NCBI GenBank assembly: GCA_001312405.1
Contig: BBDR01000014.1
Location: 1-64,000 of the forward strand
DNA length: 64,000 nt
Direction: 5' to 3'
DNA from: Clostridium sp. NkU-1
GTDB lineage: Bacteria; Bacillota_A; Clostridia; Lachnospirales; Lachnospiraceae
This document shows, piece by piece, positions 28,541 through 37,882 of the stretch. Below the pieces are notes generated by a model that made no database searches, was not told the DNA's origin, and worked only from the letters and a program-made list of their open reading frames with translations. Within the stretch, counting starts at the first letter, position 1, and every line of letters begins with the position of its first letter. Both the position numbers and the translations under genes were made by a program.

Positions 28541-30028
28541 ATGCAGAACGTAGAGCTTCAAAAGAAATATCAGTTATTCATAGGTGGACAGTGGAAGGAG
28601 GCTTCCGATGGAAAAACATTTCCAAGTATCTGTCCGGCCGATGGGAGGGTGTTGGCTGAGTGCGCCGAGGCAACAAAGGAAGACGTGGATGAGGCGGTCA
28701 GGGAAGCATGGAAGGCTTTTGAGACCTGGAAGCATGTATCGGTAAACCAGAGAGCTGTCATCCTGAATAAGATTGCGGATATCATAGATGCAAATAAGGA
28801 ACATCTTGCCATGGTGGAGACCCTGGACAACGGGAAACCCATAAGGGAAACAATGGCGGTCGATATACCTCTTGCAGCTCAGCATTTCCGCTATTTTGCA
28901 GGCTGCATTCTTGGGGAAGAGGGCAGTGCCAATATGCTGGGAGAAAATACCCTGAGTCTGATCCTCAAAGAGCCTATCGGCGTGGTTGGGCAAATCGTTC
29001 CCTGGAATTTCCCCTTCCTGATGGCGGCCTGGAAGCTGGCACCGGTACTGGCAAGCGGCTGCTGTTCCGTCTTTAAGACTTCCAGCACCACTTCTCTCAG
29101 CGTTCTGGAATTGGCAAGGCTGATCCAGGATGTGATCCCGGCAGGGGTGTTCAATGTTATTACCGGAGCAGGTTCCAAGTCCGGGCAGTATATTCTGGAA
29201 CACGAAGGTTTCCGGAAGCTGGCATTTACCGGCTCAACGGAAGTAGGAAAGAACGTGGCCCTTGCAGCAGCGGAAAAGCTGATTCCGGCTACTTTAGAGC
29301 TGGGCGGCAAATCAGCCAATATTTTCTTTGAGGACTGTGATTGGGAGATGGCCATGGATGGTTTACAGCTGGTATTCTCTTTAATCAGGGCCAGGTGTGC
29401 TGTGCGGGTTCCAGGGTCTTTGTGCAGGAAAGCATTTACGACAAGTTTGTGGAAGAAGCGGTTAAACGGTTTAACCAAGTAAAGGTCGGCCTTCCGTGGG
29501 ATGAAAATACCCAGATGGGAAGTCAGATCAGTAAAGGGCATATGAAGGACATTTTAAGCCGCATAGAGATAGGAAAATCGGAAGGAGCTGCTGTACTTTG
29601 TGGCGGAAAGCAGATTCTGGAGGACGGACTGGAAAACGGAGCTTTTTTTAAGGCCTACACTCCTTGGCAATGTGACAAACGACATGAGGGTGGCACAGGA
29701 AGAGATCTTCGGACCAGTGGCATGTATTATTAAGTTTAAGACAGAGGATGAGGTTGTGGCCATGGCCAATGACAGCCAGTACGGACTGGGCGGAGCAGTG
29801 TGGACCAGGGACATCAATAGGGCAATACGGGTTGCCAGAGCGGTGGAGACCGGTCGTATGTGGGTTAATACCTATAATTCCATTCCTGAGGGAGCTCCTT
29901 TTGGCGGATACAAGACCTCGGGAATCGGCCGTGAGACACATAAGGTCATTCTGGAACACTACACCCAGACAAAGAATATCATGATTAATTTAAGTGAATC
30001 TCCTTCAGGTTTTTATCCGGTTAAATAG
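28541..30028 (+). CDS. NAD(P)-dependent aldehyde dehydrogenase, two frameshifts
   Basis: About 495 residues when slips near 29370 and 29665 are bridged. Signature parts: 'GVVGQIVPWNFPFLMAAWKL' (cofactor site), 'ATLELGGKSANIFFEDCD' (catalytic Glu), 'LFNQGQVCCAGSRVFVQE' (catalytic Cys), 'TQEEIFGPV' class motif as 'AQEEIFGPVACIIKF', 'YGLGGAVWTRDINRAIRVA'. It oxidises an aldehyde to the carboxylic acid; close relatives act on betaine aldehyde, acetaldehyde or aromatic aldehydes. Single gene with its own promoter and terminator. Confidence 0.92.
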
Positions 30029-30146: not shown

Positions 30147-30176
30147 TTGACAAAATAAAAAAATTGGCAGTATTCT
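30147..30176 (+). promoter_or_regulatory. Promoter of the leader and ABC exporter operon
   Basis: TTGACA 30147-30152 and TATTCT 30171-30176 with 18-base spacing, about 50 bases before the leader ORF. Confidence 0.65.
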
Positions 30177-30226
30177 AGTAATTGTACAATAAATACCAAT
30201 AATTCTAAGAAAAGGAGGCAGAAACT

Positions 30227-30319
30227 ATGAAACGTAACTATTACGCAATTGGAATGAATAAAATAGGAAAATTATTTTATATTAATTCAGTCTGCCTCAG
30301 TGAAGATAGAATCTCGTGA
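30227..30319 (+). CDS. 30-residue leader peptide of the ABC exporter operon
   Basis: ATG 30227 behind a strong AAAGGAGG (30211-30218). The peptide is MKRNYYAIGMNKIGK-LFYINSVCLSEDRIS, stop at 30317-30319. Its ribosome-binding site GAGGCAGA is complementary to TCTGCCTC inside the peptide's own coding sequence, so the leader can fold on its own start. A conserved motif and an intrinsic terminator follow 14 bases after the stop, before the exporter genes. This layout resembles the BmrB leader of Bacillus subtilis bmrCD, where ribosome stalling by antibiotics relieves termination. The sequence itself is unrelated as far as can be seen. Confidence 0.65.
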   Translation: MKRNYYAIGMNKIGKLFYINSVCLSEDRIS

Positions 30320-30332
30320 TCATAGGTGTCAT

Positions 30333-30411
30333 GGGATGAGTGACAGCTCTAATCAGGAGCTGCTTCAATGAGTTTTTTTCCGCAGTCTGGATGGACTGCG
30401 GTTATTTTTTT
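30333..30411 (+). promoter_or_regulatory. Leader-RNA motif copy B with attenuator terminator
   Basis: GGGATGAGTGAC (30333-30344), hairpin CAGCTC (30344-30349)/GAGCTG (30357-30362), GCTTC, then terminator CCGCAGTC (30380-30387)/GACTGCGG (30394-30401) with TTATTTTTTT. Placed between leader peptide and exporter, so it probably works as a conditional terminator. Covariation with copy A (C-G pair changed to U-A type change in the small hairpin, G/A at the loop edge) supports a real RNA fold. Confidence 0.7.
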
Positions 30412-30515
30412 GCAATTTACCCGGAAAAGACCGCACTATGCAGTTTTTTTCGGTTTTTTTTACATAAAAGGGCTGATAACCCATTCATGCTTGCAGTAAG
30501 TAAAGGAGGAAAAGT

Positions 30516-32258
30516 ATGAAAAATCTATGGCAGTATGGAAAGAAGTACAGTTTTTTGTATGTTTTGGCGATTGTGGCCATGGTCGTCAGCATCCTTTTGG
30601 ATGCAATGGCTCCCCAGATCACAAAACATATTATTGATGATGTCATTGTGGGGGGACAGATGCAGATTCTCATGAGGCTGCTTTTAGGGCTTCTGGGAAT
30701 TGGACTTGGAAGAGCGGTACTTCAGTACACAAAGGAATTTATTTTTGATTATGCTGCCTCTGGGATCGGCTGCAGTTTAAGGAAGGATTTATTTAACCAC
30801 ATCCAGACCCTGTCCATGGGGTATTTTGACAACCACAACACAGGGGAATTGATGGCAAGGATCAAGGATGACGCGGAACGTATCTGGAACGCCTTTGGAT
30901 TTGTGGGAATGCTGGTTTTGGAATGTTCTATTCACACGGTCATCGTTATCGTCTGCATGTACCGTCTAAGCCCCAGCCTTACCCTGATTCCGTTGGTGAT
31001 TCTCCCCCTGATCGCCTGGTATGCGGTCAAAATGGAAAACGGCCTGGGAGATGTTTACGATAAGATCAGCGAGCAGACTGCTGAATTAAACACGGTGGCG
31101 CAGGAGAACCTGGCCGGGGTCCGTACCGTGAAGGCCTTTGCAAGAGAAGATTATGAAATTGAGAAATTCAAGAAGCACAACAAGCAGTATTATCATCTAA
31201 ATATGCAGCAGGCCAAACTGATCGTCCGCTATCAGCCAAACATATCCTTTTTGTCAAAGGTGCTGTTAATGGCAGTCATTGTCATAGGGGGCATTCTGGT
31301 CATTAATGATAAGATGACCATTGGAGATCTGGGCGCATTTTCCGAGTATGCCAATAACATTATCTGGCCAATGGAAATGGTGGGCTGGCTCAGCAATGAT
31401 ATTGCAGCAGCTGTGGCATCCAACAAGAAGATCAAAAAGATCATGGAAGAGCAGCCGGTCATCTGCAATCCCGAAAACCCGGTACTGCCGGAAACTATCC
31501 AGGGAGAACTGGCCTTTCACCATGTGGACTTTGAACTGGACGGGAAGAGTATTTTAAGCGACATTGATTTTACCTTGGCAAAAGGAAAGACCCTTGGCAT
31601 CATGGGTGTGACCGGTTCAGGTAAAAGCTCCATTGTCAATTTGATCGAGCGTTTCTATGACGTAACAAGAGGAGAGATCCTTTTAGACGGGATCAATGTA
31701 AAGAATCTTCCTTTGGCATTCTTAAGGGGTCAGGTGTCGGTGGTCATGCAGGACGTATTCCTGTTTTCAGACAGCATTACGGAAAACATTAAGACAGGAA
31801 ATAAGGATGCGACAGAATGGGAAAGCGTGCAGCAGGCCTCCATCTCGGCAGGAGCCCACGGCTTTATCCAGAAGCTTTCAGAGCAGTATGATACGGTGAT
31901 CGGGGAGCGGGGAGTCGGGCTTTCCGGAGGGCAGAAGCAGAGGATCAGCATAGCCAGAGCTATTGCAAAAGAAACGCCTCTTTTAATTCTTGATGACTCC
32001 ACCTCGGCTCTTGATATGGAGACGGAAAAGGAGATTGAGGCCCATCTTACAGAATTAAAGGACAGTTCAAAAATCATTATCGCCCACCGCATTTCAGCGG
32101 TGCGCCGTGCCGATGAGATCCTGATCCTGGATGAAGGACGGATCGTGGAACGGGGAACCCATGAGGAGCTTATGGAAATGCGGGGACAATATTATAAAAC
32201 CTATCAGGTGCAGTATGGAGAGGAGGAGATGAAATGGCAGTCAATTCAAGCAGAATAG
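30516..32258 (+). CDS. ABC exporter half-transporter, first subunit
   Basis: Intact, 580 residues, start ATG 30516 behind AAAGGAGG. Six-helix exporter domain (residues about 15-300) and ATPase domain: Walker A 'GVTGSGKSS', signature LSGGQKQ, Walker B ending 'LILDDSTSALD'. The residue after Walker B is Asp instead of the catalytic Glu, so its ATP site is probably weak or non-catalytic. Together with the next protein it should form a heterodimeric multidrug exporter of the BmrC/D or YheI/H kind. The stop overlaps the next start by 25 bases. Confidence 0.92.
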   Translation: MKNLWQYGKKYSFLYVLAIVAMVVSILLDAMAPQITKHIIDDVIVGGQMQILMRLLLGLLGIGLGRAVLQYTKEFIFDYAASGIGCSLRKDLFNHIQTLSMGYFDNHNTGELMARIKDDAERIWNAFGFVGMLVLECSIHTVIVIVCMYRLSPSLTLIPLVILPLIAWYAVKMENGLGDVYDKISEQTAELNTVAQENLAGVRTVKAFAREDYEIEKFKKHNKQYYHLNMQQAKLIVRYQPNISFLSKVLLMAVIVIGGILVINDKMTIGDLGAFSEYANNIIWPMEMVGWLSNDIAAAVASNKKIKKIMEEQPVICNPENPVLPETIQGELAFHHVDFELDGKSILSDIDFTLAKGKTLGIMGVTGSGKSSIVNLIERFYDVTRGEILLDGINVKNLPLAFLRGQVSVVMQDVFLFSDSITENIKTGNKDATEWESVQQASISAGAHGFIQKLSEQYDTVIGERGVGLSGGQKQRISIARAIAKETPLLILDDSTSALDMETEKEIEAHLTELKDSSKIIIAHRISAVRRADEILILDEGRIVERGTHEELMEMRGQYYKTYQVQYGEEEMKWQSIQAE

Positions 32259-34009
32259 ATGAAGATCAGAAAGAAGTATTCAAAAAGGATACCCTGCTTC
32301 GCCTGTACCGGTATCTCCTGGAATATAAAAAGCAGATTATCATTGTTCTTTTTATCATGGCCGGAACCATAGCCATCAGTATGTCGGCGCCCCTTATGAT
32401 GGAATATGCCATCAATTCATGCGTGGCTAAGAAGGATATGGCAGGTCTTTTATGGCTGGGGTTTGGTGCAATAGTGCTGTTCCTTTTATTCCTTGCCGGA
32501 ACCAAGATGCGTATGCGCATCATGGCAGATGTATCCAACCAGGTGCTTTTAAATATCAGGGAAGAGCTTTATAGACACATTCAGACTCTTGGCTTTGGCT
32601 TTTTCGACAGCCGGCCTACGGGAAAGGTGCTTGCAAGGATTATTGGAGATGTGAATTCCTTAAAGGATGTACTGTCAGACAGTGTGACCCAGCTGATACC
32701 GGACCTTCTCACAGTGGTCTGTGTGGCAATCATCATGCTGGTAAAGAATTACCGCCTGGCAATGGCGGCACTGCTGACACTTCCCATTTTGGCAGTGGGC
32801 ATGTTTCTGATTGAAACCACGGTTCATAAAAGATGGCAGATATACCGTAAAAAAACCTCCAATTTAAATGCCTATGTACATGAAGATTTATCCGGAATCC
32901 GGATCATACAGAGTTTTGCAGCGGAACCGGAGACAAAAGAGGTATTTCATGATCTGGTAAACCAGCATTACAAATCCTTCATGGATGCAGTCATAGTGGC
33001 GGACGGCTTTGGCCCGCTGGTAGAAATAACCTGGGGCCTGGGCGGTTTCCTGCTGTATTTCATAGGAATCCGGATTGTTGGAGTGGAGAAAATCGGAATC
33101 GGTACCTTTCTCGCGTTCTCAACCTATATCGCCATGTTCTGGAGCCCTATCCGGAATCTGGCTAACTTTTACAATAAACTGACCACCAACATTTCCGCTG
33201 CAGAACGTATTTTTGATATTATTGACACAGAGGCAGAAATAACGGATCAGGAGGGTGCTGTGCCCTTACCAGAGATTAAGGGAGAGGTGGTCTTTGATCA
33301 CGTATCCTTTGCTTATGGGGATGAGCCGGACCGGCTGATTCTTGATGATGTAAATTTTTCTGTTAAGCCAGGGGAAACCATTGCCCTGGTAGGACCAACA
33401 GGCGCTGGAAAGACCACCATTGTAAACCTGATCAGCCGTTTTTATGAAACAACCGATGGAAGGATTTTTATTGACGGTCACGAAATCAAAGAAGTGACAT
33501 TAAAAAGCTTAAGAAGCCAGATGGGGATCATGACCCAGGATAATTTCCTGTTTTCCGGAACCATACGGGATAACATCAAATACGGGCGTCTGGAAGCGTC
33601 TGACGAGGAAGTAATGGAGGCAGCCAAAGCAGTCAATGCCCATGAATTTATTATGAAGCTGGAAAACGGATACGATACGGTGATCAGCGAGAGAGGGTCG
33701 GGCCTCTCCATCGGACAGAGGCAGCTTCTGGCTTTTGCAAGAACCATGGTGTCAATGCCCGGGATTTTGATCCTTGATGAGGCCACCTCCAGCATTGATA
33801 CCCATACCGAGCTTCTGGTACAGAAGGGAATCGATGCCCTTTTAAGGGGCAGAACTTCCTTTGTCATTGCCCACCGCCTTTCTACGATCCGCAAGGCTGA
33901 CCGCATTTTTGTCATTGACCAGGGGAATATCATGGAGTCAGGAAGCCATGAGGAATTGATGGAATTAAAAGGTGCTTACTATAAACTATACCAGAGCCAG
34001 TTTTCCTAG
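32234..34009 (+). CDS. ABC exporter half-transporter, second subunit
   Basis: Intact, 591 residues, ATG 32234 inside the previous gene with GGAGGAG upstream. Six helices, Walker A 'GPTGAGKTT', signature changed to 'GSGLSIGQRQLLAFAR', Walker B 'GILILDEATSSID' with the catalytic Glu. The pair thus has one canonical and one degenerate ATP site, as in BmrCD and TM287/288. Substrates are probably lipophilic drugs or translation-inhibiting antibiotics, given the leader. Confidence 0.92.
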   Translation: MAVNSSRIDEDQKEVFKKDTLLRLYRYLLEYKKQIIIVLFIMAGTIAISMSAPLMMEYAINSCVAKKDMAGLLWLGFGAIVLFLLFLAGTKMRMRIMADVSNQVLLNIREELYRHIQTLGFGFFDSRPTGKVLARIIGDVNSLKDVLSDSVTQLIPDLLTVVCVAIIMLVKNYRLAMAALLTLPILAVGMFLIETTVHKRWQIYRKKTSNLNAYVHEDLSGIRIIQSFAAEPETKEVFHDLVNQHYKSFMDAVIVADGFGPLVEITWGLGGFLLYFIGIRIVGVEKIGIGTFLAFSTYIAMFWSPIRNLANFYNKLTTNISAAERIFDIIDTEAEITDQEGAVPLPEIKGEVVFDHVSFAYGDEPDRLILDDVNFSVKPGETIALVGPTGAGKTTIVNLISRFYETTDGRIFIDGHEIKEVTLKSLRSQMGIMTQDNFLFSGTIRDNIKYGRLEASDEEVMEAAKAVNAHEFIMKLENGYDTVISERGSGLSIGQRQLLAFARTMVSMPGILILDEATSSIDTHTELLVQKGIDALLRGRTSFVIAHRLSTIRKADRIFVIDQGNIMESGSHEELMELKGAYYKLYQSQFS

Positions 34010-34231: not shown

Positions 34232-35092
34232 ATGACAGAAGGAGCATTGGTTTTAGAAGGGGGTTCTTTAAGGGGCGTATTTACGGCCGGGGTTTTGGAT
34301 GTATTCATGGAACAGGGGATTGAGATGTCCTATGTAAACGGAGTATCAGCCGGTTCTATGTGCGGCATGAGCTATGTAAGCAAACAGATCGGCCGTACCA
34401 TTAAAGTGAATTTGGATTATGTCAATGATAAACGGTTTTTAAGCTTTCGGAATATGGTGAAAAGCCGCTCCATTTTTAATTTTGATTTCCTGTTCGGGGA
34501 ATTGTGCGATACACTGGTTCCCTTTGATTATGATACCTTTTGGAATTCCCAGCAGACCTTTGAGGTGGTTGCCACCCGCTGCAAGACAGGAAAACCGGAA
34601 TATTTTGAAAAGAGTTCCTGTGATGATTTTATTGACGCTGTAAAGGCTTCCAGCAGCATTCCCATTATGTCCAGCATGATTCCTATAAAAGGGAAAAAGT
34701 ATCTGGATGGGGGCTGTGCCTTGCCTATTGCATATCAGAGAGCCATTGATCTGGGATATGAAAAGATCGTTGTGGTACTTACCAGGGAGCACGGGTATCG
34801 GAAACCTCAGCTTGATAAGTGGACGAAAAGAGGATATGAACGCTATTTTGCTCCGCTGCCTGAGCTTTTGAAAGCTTTGTTAGAGGTCCCGGACCGGTAT
34901 AACTGGATGCAGGAGGAGATTGACCGGCTGGAAAAAGAAGGGAAGATTTATGTCATCCGTCCGGATAAGCATGTTACGGTCCAGAGAACCGAAAAAGATA
35001 GGCGGAAGCTGGAGGCCCTTTATGAGGAAGGGCGGCGTCTGGCGGAAGAGCATATGGGGAAGTTGAAAGAGTATTTGGAGATTAAAGAGTAA
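34232..35092 (+). CDS. Patatin-like phospholipase
   Basis: Intact, 286 residues. Oxyanion-hole motif 'LEGGSLRGVFTAGVLD', nucleophile Ser in 'GVSAGSM', catalytic Asp in 'LDGGCALPIAY' (DGG). YjjU-type bacterial patatins are cytoplasmic acyl hydrolases acting on phospholipids or acyl esters; no signal peptide here. Single gene followed by a tandem-repeat region. Confidence 0.9.
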   Translation: MTEGALVLEGGSLRGVFTAGVLDVFMEQGIEMSYVNGVSAGSMCGMSYVSKQIGRTIKVNLDYVNDKRFLSFRNMVKSRSIFNFDFLFGELCDTLVPFDYDTFWNSQQTFEVVATRCKTGKPEYFEKSSCDDFIDAVKASSSIPIMSSMIPIKGKKYLDGGCALPIAYQRAIDLGYEKIVVVLTREHGYRKPQLDKWTKRGYERYFAPLPELLKALLEVPDRYNWMQEEIDRLEKEGKIYVIRPDKHVTVQRTEKDRRKLEALYEEGRRLAEEHMGKLKEYLEIKE

Positions 35093-35377: not shown

Positions 35378-37665
35378 ATGAGTATTTATGATACATTAAA
35401 TCCAATGCAAAAAGAAGCGGTACTTCATACGGAGGGACCGCTTCTTGTGCTGGCAGGAGCGGGATCTGGTAAGACCAGAGTTTTAACGCACCGCATTGCT
35501 TATTTAATAGAGGAGAAGAATATCAATCCATGGAATATCCTGGCCATCACTTTTACCAATAAAGCGGCGGGTGAAATGCGGGAGCGTGTAGACCGTCTGG
35601 TGGGCTTTGGTGCGGACAGTATCTGGGTTTCCACCTTTCATTCATCTGTGTGCGCATTCTCAGGAGGCACATAGAAAGCCTTGCTATTCGACGAATTTTA
35701 CAATATATGATTCCGATGACCAAAAAACTCTGATGCGCCATGTGTTAAAGAGCCTTGATATGGATCCGAAGATTTATAAGGACCGGGCCATGCTGGGATT
35801 TATCTCCACGGCAAAAAATGAGCTTGTGACGGCCCAGGAGTTTGAACTGAATGCCGGCGGCGATTTCAGGCAGAAAAAGGTGGCGCTGATTTATAAAGAA
35901 TATCAGAACCAGTTAAAAAAGAACAATGCCCTGGACTTTGATGATTTGATCATGAAAACCGTGCAGCTGTTCCAGAATAATCCGGAAATCCTGGATTATT
36001 ATCAGGAACGTTTTAAATACATCATGGTGGATGAATATCAGGATACCAATACGGCCCAGTTTAAGCTTATAAGCCTCCTGGCAGGTAAATACAGGAATCT
36101 TTGTGTTGTGGGAGATGACGACCAGTCCATCTATAAATTCCGCGGCGCTAACATTGAAAATATCTTAAACTTTGAAAAAGCTTATCCAGGGGCCAGGGTG
36201 ATTAAGCTGGAACAGAACTACCGCTCCAGCCAGAGCATTTTAAATGCAGCCAATGAGGTGATCCGCCATAACCGGGGACGAAAGGACAAAACCCTGTGGA
36301 CTGCCAATGAGGAAGGCCCTCTGGTACAGTTTAAGCAATTTGAGAACGCTCCGGAAGAGGCAGATGCAATTGTCCGGGACATTTTAAACAGCTCTTCTGA
36401 TTACCAGGACTGTGCTGTCCTTTACAGAACCAATGCCCAGTCCCGTTTGATTGAAGAAAAATGCCTTCAACACAATGTTCCATACCGCATGGTGGGAGGG
36501 GTGAATTTCTATCAGAGAAAAGAAATTAAGGACGTTCTGTCCTATTTAAAGACCATTTCCAACGGACAGGATGATTTATCCTCTTTAAGGATTATCAATG
36601 TGCCAAAGCGGGGAATTGGAGCCACCAGCCTTGGAAGAGTCCAGGCCTTTGCTTCTGAACATGGATTTTCCATTTATAATGCCTTTTGCCGGGCAAAGGC
36701 TGTGCCTGGACTTGGAAAAACGGCGGAGAAAGTCCTTAAGTTTACGGAGCTGATCGAGGATTTCAGGAAAAGGCTTGAAGAAGAGACGTATTCCATACAT
36801 GAACTGATTGAAGACCTTCTGGATGAAACCGGCTACTTAAAGGAATTAGAGTCAGAGGGTGAAATTGAGTACCAGACACGACTGGAAAATATAGAAGAGC
36901 TGATCAATAAGGCGGTCAGCTTTGAAGGGGAGCATGAGCACCCTAACTTAAATGAATTTCTGGAAGAGGTCGCTTTGGTGGCTGATGTAGACCGGATGGA
37001 TGATTCAGAAAACAGAGTGACCCTTATGACCCTGCACAGCGCCAAGGGACTTGAGTTTCCAAGAGTGTATTTAAGCGGCATGGAAGACGGGCTGTTCCCA
37101 AGCATGATGTCCATTTCTTCAGACGATAAAGAGGATGTGGAAGAAGAGCGCCGGCTTTGCTATGTGGGAATTACAAGAGCTCAGAATTTCCTGATGATGA
37201 CGGCGGCAAGACAGCGTATGGTCAATGGAGAAACAAGATATTCCAAGGTAAGCCGTTTCATAGATGAAATTCCTGACAGGCTTTTGGATTCAAGTAAGCT
37301 GGAGTCAAGAATGTCTTCTGGCCGTACGCTTGATTATGATGACAGCGGTCTGCCATGGGGAAAAGCAAAAACAGCCGGACGGCAGGCAGGTGTCAGCAGC
37401 TTTGGTCCTGGGAACAATGTATATGCATCAAAAACCGCAGCCCCTGCGTCAACACCTGGTTTTGGCAAAGCATTTACCGTAGAAAAGGCAGCTTCTTTAA
37501 ACTATAAAAAAGGGGACCGGGTCAGCCATGTGAAGTTTGGGGAAGGCGAGGTATTGGAGATCAAGGACGGCGGCAGGGATTTTGAAGTCACAGTCCGGTT
37601 TGACCAGGCAGGCGTCAAAAAAAATGTTTGCTTCCTTTGCAAAGCTGAAACTTGTACGAGTTTGA
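35378..37665 (+). CDS. pcrA: UvrD/PcrA-type DNA helicase, two frameshifts
   Basis: ATG 35378. Superfamily 1 helicase motifs in order: 'LNPMQKEAV' (Q motif), '[19 protein letters not shown]' (Walker A), '[15 protein letters not shown]', '[13 protein letters not shown]' (Walker B), '[15 protein letters not shown]', '[16 protein letters not shown]', '[19 protein letters not shown]', '[13 protein letters not shown]'. Slips near 35655 and 37618; the corrected tail is [15 protein letters not shown], typical for PcrA, with the stop at 37665. About 763 residues. It unwinds DNA in repair and rolling-circle replication. Being essential in Firmicutes, its frameshifts argue for sequence errors. Confidence 0.93.
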
Positions 37666-37882
37666 TTTAAAATACATAATTTATTAAAAAAAAGCAAAAA
37701 TGATAGTAAAAGAATCAATATAATGGTATAATAACTGCGACAGGCAGAGAGACTAAAACCTAGCCGAAAGATTTAAAGGTAATGCCTTACAGGCATACCT
37801 TTACACCCAATAAAGCGGGGTGGGCTCTGCCCTGAAAGAATGGGCATAAAAAAAGCAGGGCTCTCAGAAAGGACGTGGAGAT

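What the first reader, a model, noticed from the sequence alone, without database searches (positions are those of the whole stretch)
30227..30411. Leader peptide plus attenuator in front of a heterodimeric ABC exporter
A 30-codon ORF with a strong RBS is followed by a conserved motif, a small hairpin and an intrinsic terminator, all before a BmrC/D-like exporter pair. The leader's RBS (GAGGCAGA) can pair with TCTGCCTC in its own coding part. Seen: ORF, complementarity, terminator. Known: B. subtilis bmrCD is controlled by the BmrB leader through ribosome-mediated attenuation. Inferred: translation-targeting antibiotics stall on this leader and let transcription reach the exporter. The leader sequence looks unlike BmrB, so it may be an independent case.
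Basis: partly seen in the sequence, partly recalled or inferred. Interest (0 to 1): 0.75.

Follow-up and report, generated by a model that had tools for sequence, protein, structure and literature searches.

The report
Ribosome-sensing RNA switch before exporter genes
In front of a pair of drug-exporter-like genes lies a short leader gene whose ribosome-binding site, a complementary stretch near its end and a transcription terminator compete for pairing, so the exporter is probably made only when ribosomes get stuck early in the leader; the arrangement is kept in many related bacteria.

Summary
In detail: leader ORF 30227-30319, strong SD, TCTGCCTC complementary to the SD, intrinsic terminator 30380-30401, then an ABC exporter pair. 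It is not chance: an automated rule finds leader plus terminator upstream of 44 of 69 family orthologs, against 0 of 552 shuffles and 3 of 372 control windows. Evolution keeps the pairing, not the peptide: a segment near the leader's end (aSD) pairs with the leader's SD or with the terminator's 5' arm, and own partners beat 20000 swaps in two locus sets. aSD is read in different frames. Best reading: ribosome-mediated transcription attenuation in which the SD itself is the anti-antiterminator. No ribosome, or one that has run on, gives termination; a ribosome held at the start gives read-through. The occupancy model fits the window well but fails to show the switch in 11 of 39 loci. Antibiotic induction is inferred, not shown. 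New variant of a known kind.

The parts
30147..30176 (+). putative sigma-70-like promoter, TTGACA-N18-TATTCT
   Evidence: consensus scan; similar site within 140 nt upstream of the SD in 36 of 39 loci
30213..30222 (+). leader Shine-Dalgarno AGGAGGCAGA, proposed also as the anti-antiterminator strand
   Evidence: pairs with aSD at -15.4 kcal/mol; partner-swap tests 0/20000 in two locus sets
30227..30319 (+). leader ORF, 30 codons
   Evidence: ORF open from ATG to aSD in 22 of 22 hand-chosen representatives, the other two frames in 2 and 0
30285..30298 (+). aSD segment: TCTGCCTC (30291-30298) pairs with the SD; ATTCAG-U-CTGC (30285-30295) pairs with the 5' arm of T1
30296..30305 (+). P1 5' strand, continuation of the antiterminator helix
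   Evidence: fold with start site masked; partner-swap test 0/20000 over 54 loci, weaker in subsets
30363..30372 (+). P1 3' strand
30380..30401 (+). terminator T1 (9 pairs) followed by a T run; 30382-30392 is the antiterminator target
30421..30453 (+). second terminator-like hairpin T2 followed by a T run; its 5' arm (AAAAGACCGC) can pair with the T1 3' arm and T run
30516..32258 (+). ABC exporter half-transporter A (580 aa); Walker B reads LILDD (no catalytic Glu), signature LSGGQ
   Evidence: motifs read by eye in the translation
32234..34009 (+). ABC exporter half-transporter B (591 aa); Walker B reads LILDE, signature LSIGQ
   Evidence: motifs read by eye in the translation

Best explanation
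A ribosome-mediated transcription attenuator that reads ribosome position on the leader rather than a particular peptide. Segment aSD near the 3' end of the leader ORF has two rival partners. (i) If no ribosome sits on the leader SD, SD:aSD pairs, the T1 5' arm stays free, T1 forms and transcription stops. (ii) If a ribosome is held at the start codon (strongest case in the model) or in early codons, SD is covered and aSD is free; as the polymerase reaches T1, aSD plus P1 captures the T1 5' arm (antiterminator) and transcription continues. (iii) If the ribosome runs to the end, it covers aSD/P1 while T1 is made and T1 forms. Likely inducers are ribosome antibiotics or other stress that holds ribosomes at or soon after initiation. 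In the Lacrimispora/Hungatella rows the freed T1 3' arm and T run may then pair with the T2 5' arm, so that T2 is disarmed too. Supported by comparison: the segments, their rival pairings, the kept ORF and the place of aSD. Inferred: translation, direction of switching, inducers, T2 coupling.
For: Energies in the window: SD:aSD -15.4, aSD+P1:T1-5' -23.3, T1 -15.4 kcal/mol; with the start site masked and the transcript ending at the T1 apex the MFE is the full antiterminator, unmasked it contains SD:aSD. Leader, SD, aSD and T1 in 39 of 43 upstream regions examined, window included. Partner swaps, 22 hand-chosen representatives: SD vs region, T1-5' vs aSD located by SD alone, and SD vs segment located by T1-5' alone, each 0/20000; T1-5' vs whole region 1/20000. 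33 new loci: the same three focused tests each 0/20000. Automated detection in 44 of 69 orthologs (11 of the 44 repeat loci of the first set); 40 of 69 with SD:aSD at or below -10 and aSD ending 8-40 nt before the stop; 0/552 shuffles detected; 3/372 control windows detected, 0/372 meeting both further conditions. ORF open over aSD in 22 of 22 representatives. Expected T1-5' arm nucleotides paired with the aSD region in the window: 0.4 no ribosome, 6.8 at start, 6.8 at codon 5, 3.2 and 3.5 at codons 8 and 12, 6.5 at 16, 0.0 from codon 20 on; medians for none/start/stop 1.15/7.35/0.01 over 22 representatives and 2.35/6.8/0.02 over 39 loci. bmrB needs leader translation and loses induction without it (PMC4191407 passages).
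Against: With T1 fully transcribed, the MFE with a masked start still contains T1, so the switch must be kinetic, which was not simulated. In 11 of 39 loci (6 of the 22 representatives) masking the start does not raise antiterminator pairing by more than 0.5 nt: nine are already high without a ribosome, L027 and L036 are near zero; in 16 of 39 the no-ribosome value is 4 nt or more, many of them Lacrimispora loci. Over the representatives the effect falls fast after the start: medians 3.25, 1.93, 1.9, 0.23 at codons 5, 8, 12, 16. aSD:T1-5' is no better than shuffles in L016 and L034 (0.59, 0.55) and between 0.05 and 0.13 in seven other representatives. Four of 43 regions (L018, L039, L040, L041) lack the leader; 25 of 69 orthologs were not detected. 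Swaps do not remove shared ancestry, so their counts overstate independence. No expression data of any kind.
Confidence: 0.82

Rival explanations
1. Peptide-specific attenuator: the ribosome stalls because of the leader's own amino acids (an arrest peptide with a drug, or scarcity of one amino acid), as in trp/his/ilv leaders or RLR-type macrolide leaders.
For: Asn is over-represented (133 seen, 70.8 expected), as are Met and Ala, and Pro is depleted (2 seen, 14.4 expected) in codons 2-17 of 55 leaders, so the codons are not random; 19 of 55 leaders hold a +X+ motif.
Against: Peptides differ between lineages and aSD is read in different frames; leader pN/pS 0.35-1.05 in four groups vs 0.03-0.09 for the exporter, on few changes per leader (a fifth group, L003/L035, has no synonymous change in the leader, so no ratio); +X+ in 19 of 55 leaders vs 17.6 expected; by eye no common run of one amino acid.
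Confidence: 0.07
2. Riboswitch or protein-binding leader: a ligand or protein, not a ribosome, chooses between the folds, and the ORF is incidental.
For: Strong structure (z -4.1) and alternative helices; in 16 of 39 loci the model antiterminator forms without a ribosome, leaving room for another trigger.
Against: No Rfam family at gathering score in the window, only chance-level sub-threshold hits in the region; ORF open in 22 of 22 representatives while its sequence drifts; the stretch between the P1 strands is poorly conserved; the SD itself is a switching strand.
Confidence: 0.06
3. Ordinary end of the upstream aldehyde dehydrogenase transcript: the hairpins merely terminate it, and the exporter has its own promoter.
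For: An aldehyde dehydrogenase-like gene (named by eye) lies directly upstream in the window and intact in L001.
Against: A promoter-like site lies between that gene and the leader; one search lists no + strand promoter-like site between T1 and the exporter; leader plus terminator precede the exporter in 44 of 69 orthologs.
Confidence: 0.04

Closest known systems
Bacillus subtilis bmrB leader of bmrCD (PMC4191407, passages read)
   Same: Leader ORF and conditional terminator before a heterodimeric ABC multidrug exporter; [quoted passage not shown] impaired leader translation lowers expression and abolishes induction, as predicted here for the no-ribosome state.
   Different: bmrB is 162 bp with a GTG start and its terminator lies inside the coding region; the role of its anti-anti-terminator was left open. 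Here T1 lies 60 nt past the stop codon, the proposed anti-antiterminator strand is the leader's own SD, and a second terminator follows.
vmlR leader, B. subtilis (PMC9226507, abstract and passages)
   Same: Anti-antiterminator / antiterminator / terminator logic; a drug-stalled ribosome prevents the anti-antiterminator.
   Different: Three-codon uORF whose identity matters for induction (PMC10201436 passage); its SD lies in single-stranded RNA before the anti-antiterminator hairpin; controls an ABC-F protein.
Listeria Rli53 (lmo0919) and Rli59 (lmo1652) (review PMC8079631, passages)
   Same: Ribosome-dependent attenuators in front of ABC genes; Rli59 precedes an ABC transporter gene and responds to different translation inhibitors, the broad response expected here.
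   Different: Rli53 uses a three-amino-acid ORF; the internal logic of Rli59 was not described in the passages seen, so whether it shares the SD-as-anti-antiterminator design is unknown.
Sinorhizobium meliloti DUF1127 uORF (PMC12218461, passages)
   Same: A uORF whose RBS is predicted to fold with its own first codons; a ribosome held at the start codon by tetracycline relieves premature termination.
   Different: The authors propose a factor, presumably Rho, acting on a C-rich element; no intrinsic terminator that competes with the SD for one strand; removal of the start codon de-represses there, the opposite of the prediction here.
ABC-leaders of the premature-terminator survey (PMC2965389, passages)
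   Same: Predicted attenuators upstream of ABC transporter genes, one before a multidrug export operon in lactobacilli.
   Different: The passages seen do not mention Lachnospiraceae, a leader ORF or an SD as switching strand for it.
patA attenuator, Streptococcus pneumoniae (PMC4319486, abstract and passages)
   Same: Predicted terminator / anti-terminator / anti-anti-terminator set before an ABC transporter pair; terminator function shown by reporter.
   Different: The passages seen describe no leader ORF, and reported inducers are fluoroquinolones or DNA damage.
E. coli toiL uORF (PMC12121999, abstract and section list)
   Same: One uORF that responds to at least five classes of ribosome-targeting antibiotics by stalls at different positions.
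   Different: Acts on translation and Rho-dependent termination of a toxin-antitoxin operon, not on an intrinsic terminator.

Membership tests
Ribosome-mediated transcription attenuators (general class) | Short ORF with SD upstream of a conditional intrinsic terminator | tested here: met
   ORF, SD and terminator present (39 of 43 and 44 of 69 orthologous regions); that the terminator is conditional is predicted only
Ribosome-mediated transcription attenuators (general class) | Mutually exclusive antiterminator and terminator | tested here: met
   comparative and folding evidence only; exceptions L016, L034
Ribosome-mediated transcription attenuators (general class) | Choice of fold depends on occupancy of the ORF | tested here: inconclusive
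   model supports it in the window and in 28 of 39 loci, not in 11 of 39
Ribosome-mediated transcription attenuators (general class) | Leader is translated and read-through changes with translation inhibitors | not testable with these tools
   no expression data
bmrB-type leader | Heterodimeric ABC multidrug exporter downstream | tested here: inconclusive
   two overlapping half-transporter genes with complementary degenerate motifs by eye; in the 60 best chains TM287/TM288 score above BmrC/BmrD; transport and substrates not testable
bmrB-type leader | Terminator inside the leader coding region | tested here: not met
   stop codon ends at 30319, T1 starts at 30380
bmrB-type leader | Sequence homology to bmrB | not tested
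   no B. subtilis sequence fetched
vmlR / lmo0919 short-uORF attenuators | uORF of three codons | tested here: not met
   30 codons; 24-45 in the 39 loci
RLR (+X+) macrolide-arrest leaders, e.g. hflXr (PMC6310831 passages) | RLR or +X+ motif in the leader peptide | tested here: not met
   absent in the window peptide by eye; 19 of 55 leaders vs 17.6 expected
Amino-acid attenuators (trp/his/ilv) | Run of codons for a regulatory amino acid | tested here: not met
   no shared run by eye; peptides not conserved; pooled composition
Rfam families | Match at gathering score | tested here: not met
   0 matches in 64 kb; region at E up to 10 gives 14 hits, all far below gathering scores

The most novel reading that the evidence does not exclude
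A so far undescribed, family-wide design in which the terminator's 5' arm mimics the leader's Shine-Dalgarno, so that a single anti-SD segment compares 'ribosome on the SD' with 'terminator about to form'. The peptide is free to drift, so the device reports early ribosome arrest of many causes. In the Lacrimispora/Hungatella rows it drives a domino: aSD takes the T1 5' arm, the freed T1 3' arm takes the T2 5' arm, and both terminators are disarmed by one ribosome.
Probability: 0.4. Interest if true: 0.68.

Novelty: new variant of a known kind. Interest (0 to 1): 0.55.

Why it matters
It gives many members of this bacterial family a probable inducible exporter switch with testable base pairs, and suggests that leaders of this kind can be found from SD / anti-SD / terminator complementarity even when the peptide is not conserved, which searches for conserved uORF peptides could miss. 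If the domino holds, it explains how one stalled ribosome can open two successive terminators.

Tried and rejected
Rfam at gathering and permissive thresholds gave nothing credible. The exact pattern AGGAGGCAG-N50-80-TCTGCCTC matched in 6 of 8 relatives' genomes reached through loci (twice in G002) and in 15 of 397 family genomes; by the coordinates only 4 of these 15 (G001, G005, G041, G327) have it just upstream of the exporter, so a fixed pattern is a poor probe and ortholog upstream regions were used instead. The T2 finder stepped only even lengths and missed most T2s; redone. One search read minus-strand genome-search loci in the wrong orientation; redone (the lines for L103-L142 are unaffected, because there the strand was set). 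The T1-3':T2-5' swap test was not significant on 13 loci (1971/20000) and reached 26/20000 on 27 loci, a set that includes some doubtful automatic T1 calls; T2 was not found in 28 of 55 loci, so the domino is kept as moderate. P1 swap test: 0/20000 over 54 loci, but 1100/20000 in 29 new loci (4 of 33 left out for too short a gap) and 306/20000 in 10 Lacrimispora/Hungatella representatives. A macrolide +X+ motif was considered and rejected. Covariance-model building, structure prediction and the search for homologous proteins were not used.

Choices that could bias counts: of 50 loci, 42 were examined (8 dropped: L025, L037, L044, L046-L050; too little upstream sequence, partial or distant matches); in 8 of 39 loci T1 was set by eye because the scan missed it, and others were trimmed; leaders had to have 12-70 codons, which slightly favours an open frame; the 22 representatives were chosen by hand; the automated set uses the first qualifying terminator, which is wrong in some loci (for example L073, where a hairpin before the true T1 was taken; a duplicate left out of the swap tests). 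In one search the script misread L014; the count of mismatched C includes L014 by eye.

Full report
What is there. Window 30147-30515 holds, in order: a promoter-like site, a leader SD AGGAGGCAGA (30213-30222), a 30-codon ORF (30227-30319), and, inside the ORF, TTCAGTCTGCCTC (30286-30298). Then come a variable stretch, a terminator T1 (30380-30401), a second terminator-like hairpin T2 (30421-30453), and an ABC exporter pair. In the 25 best NCBIfam rows shown for each, the exporters match ABC half-transporter models below the curated cut-offs. Among two-subunit exporters in the 60 best chains of known structure, TM287/TM288 score above BmrC/BmrD (YheI/YheH). By eye, subunit A lacks the Walker B glutamate (LILDD) and subunit B has a changed signature (LSIGQ), the usual sign of a heterodimer with one degenerate site (recalled knowledge). 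The closest locus is Lacrimispora celerecrescens 152B, 96% identity of exporter A.

Rival pairings. In the window SD:aSD has -15.4 kcal/mol, aSD plus P1 with the T1 5' arm -23.3, T1 -15.4, the T1 3' arm with the T2 5' arm -14.0 and T2 -15.4. A transcript that ends at the T1 apex folds with SD:aSD when free, and into the full antiterminator when the start region 30207-30242 is masked. When T1 is complete the MFE contains T1 in both cases, so antitermination must be won by order of synthesis; this is inferred.

Conservation. Of 50 loci found with exporter A, 42 plus the window were examined; 39 of 43 have a GGAGG-ATG leader, aSD and T1. In the genus-level alignment (22 rows titled Lacrimispora, Hungatella, Clostridium or Paenibacillaceae, window included) SD, aSD, T1 and part of T2 are the blocks of invariant columns, while leader codons and the stretch before T1 vary. 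The aSD lies inside the leader ORF in all 39; its end is 10-34 nt before the stop codon in 38 and 54 nt in L029. It is read in different frames: for the CCTC core two frames are common (for example the window and L003), and the third is seen in L023 (CCTT core) and in L030 and L033 (other core). The ORF is open from ATG to aSD in 22 of 22 representatives, the other two frames in 2 and 0; expected by shuffling 3.2. Leader pN/pS is 0.47, 0.35, 0.75 and 1.05 in four groups, against 0.03-0.09 for the exporter; the fifth group, L003/L035, has two non-synonymous and no synonymous leader changes. Changes per leader are few, so these ratios are rough.

Statistics. Partner swaps ask whether each locus's own strands pair better than strands of different loci. 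For 22 hand-chosen representatives, SD vs region: own -14.49, swapped -12.13; T1-5' vs aSD located by SD alone: -11.80 vs -8.53; SD vs segment located by T1-5' alone: -13.47 vs -10.83; each 0 of 20000; T1-5' vs whole region 1 of 20000. Of 397 genomes drawn from the family of L. celerecrescens, 70 have an ortholog at E at most 1e-170; 69 have at least 250 nt upstream, and 44 show leader plus terminator by an automated rule, 43 with SD:aSD at or below -10, 40 of these also with aSD 8-40 nt before the stop. Eleven of the 44 repeat loci of the first set. Controls: 0 of 552 shuffles detected; 3 of 372 one-kilobase windows of the same loci detected, 1 with SD:aSD at or below -10, 0 also with the aSD so placed. 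On the 33 loci not in the first set the three focused swap tests again give 0 of 20000 each; with only the SD part after GGAG the result is 1 of 20000. Relatedness is not removed by swapping. Compensations beyond the SD core are visible, for example GGAGGCCGGAA/TTCCGGCTGCC in L019, GGAGGTAGCTGTC/ACAGCTGCCGCCT in L123 and GGAGGTAAGCTTTAAG/AAAGCTTGCCCC in L136.

How it works. With ribosome footprints as masks, the expected number of T1-5' arm nucleotides held by the aSD region in the window is 0.4 (no ribosome), 6.8 (start), 6.8 (codon 5), 3.2 (8), 3.5 (12), 6.5 (16) and 0.0 from codon 20 to the stop. Over 22 representatives the medians are 1.15 (none), 7.35 (start), 3.25, 1.93, 1.9, 0.23 (codons 5, 8, 12, 16) and 0.01 (stop); over 39 loci 2.35, 6.8 and 0.02 for none, start and stop. 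Start exceeds none by more than 0.5 in 28 of 39 loci and exceeds stop in 37 of 39. Against the reading, 11 of 39 show no such rise: nine, among them L005, L010, L021, L022 and L045, already favour the antiterminator without a ribosome, and L027 and L036 never form it; 16 of 39 have 4 nt or more paired with no ribosome. The static model lets the SD pair again behind a ribosome that has moved on and ignores order of synthesis, so these may be limits of the model or real leaks. Where it fits, the device should be ON with a ribosome present but early. This agrees with bmrB, where removal of leader translation lowers expression and abolishes lincomycin induction (PMC4191407 passages). Inducers here are inferred.

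Second terminator. T2 with a T run is found in 27 of 55 loci. In 22 of 22 rows of the genus-level alignment the T2 5' arm keeps a C that is mismatched (A or T opposite) in the T2 stem, 21 by script and L014 by eye; of the 7 other loci in that call, L016 and L026 pair the C with G and 5 lack the motif. The T1 3' arm has a G for this C. Pairing T1-3':T2-5' beats swaps at 26 of 20000 (27 loci), but at 1971 of 20000 in the earlier 13 loci. I regard the domino as plausible, not shown.

What is known. Ribosome-mediated attenuation of a multidrug ABC exporter is known from bmrCD, and anti-antiterminator logic from vmlR, hflXr and Rli53. In the passages seen, the vmlR SD lies outside the anti-antiterminator hairpin; in the S. 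meliloti DUF1127 leader the uORF's RBS is predicted to fold with its first codons, in a presumably Rho-based system. In ten searches of an open-access library, of which I saw the listings, and in passages or outlines of 12 papers, I found no description of a leader SD serving as the anti-antiterminator strand against an intrinsic terminator, nor of this element; most subscription papers are not in that library. The Term-seq paper of Dar et al. 2016 was seen only as cited in the review, and Rli59 may share the design. Hence: new variant of a known kind.

Noticed in passing
window 28541-30028: An aldehyde dehydrogenase-like gene (named by eye) reads as three overlapping pieces in different frames (28541-29482, 29341-29733, 29600-30028), while L001 has one intact 495-aa ORF: frameshifts or sequencing errors in this assembly.
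   Followed up: partly
window 35378-37670: A UvrD/PcrA-like helicase (named by eye) also appears split between two frames (35378-35674 and 35607-37670).
   Followed up: no
L002 4223-8983: Tandem duplication with period 2381 (2380 identical positions in a row): leader plus exporter A occur twice, with exporter B once after the second copy.
   Followed up: partly
leader codons 2-17 in 55 loci: Proline is nearly absent (2 seen, 14.4 expected) and asparagine enriched (133 vs 70.8), although the peptides are not conserved; perhaps slow codons are avoided.
   Followed up: no
window 34232-35092: An ORF with a weak, below cut-off match to a patatin-like phospholipase model follows the exporter pair; a similar ORF follows it in L001.
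   Followed up: no
L016 and L034 leaders: aSD pairs well with the SD but not with the T1 5' arm; in L016 T1 has a different sequence, so its antiterminator may lie elsewhere.
   Followed up: no
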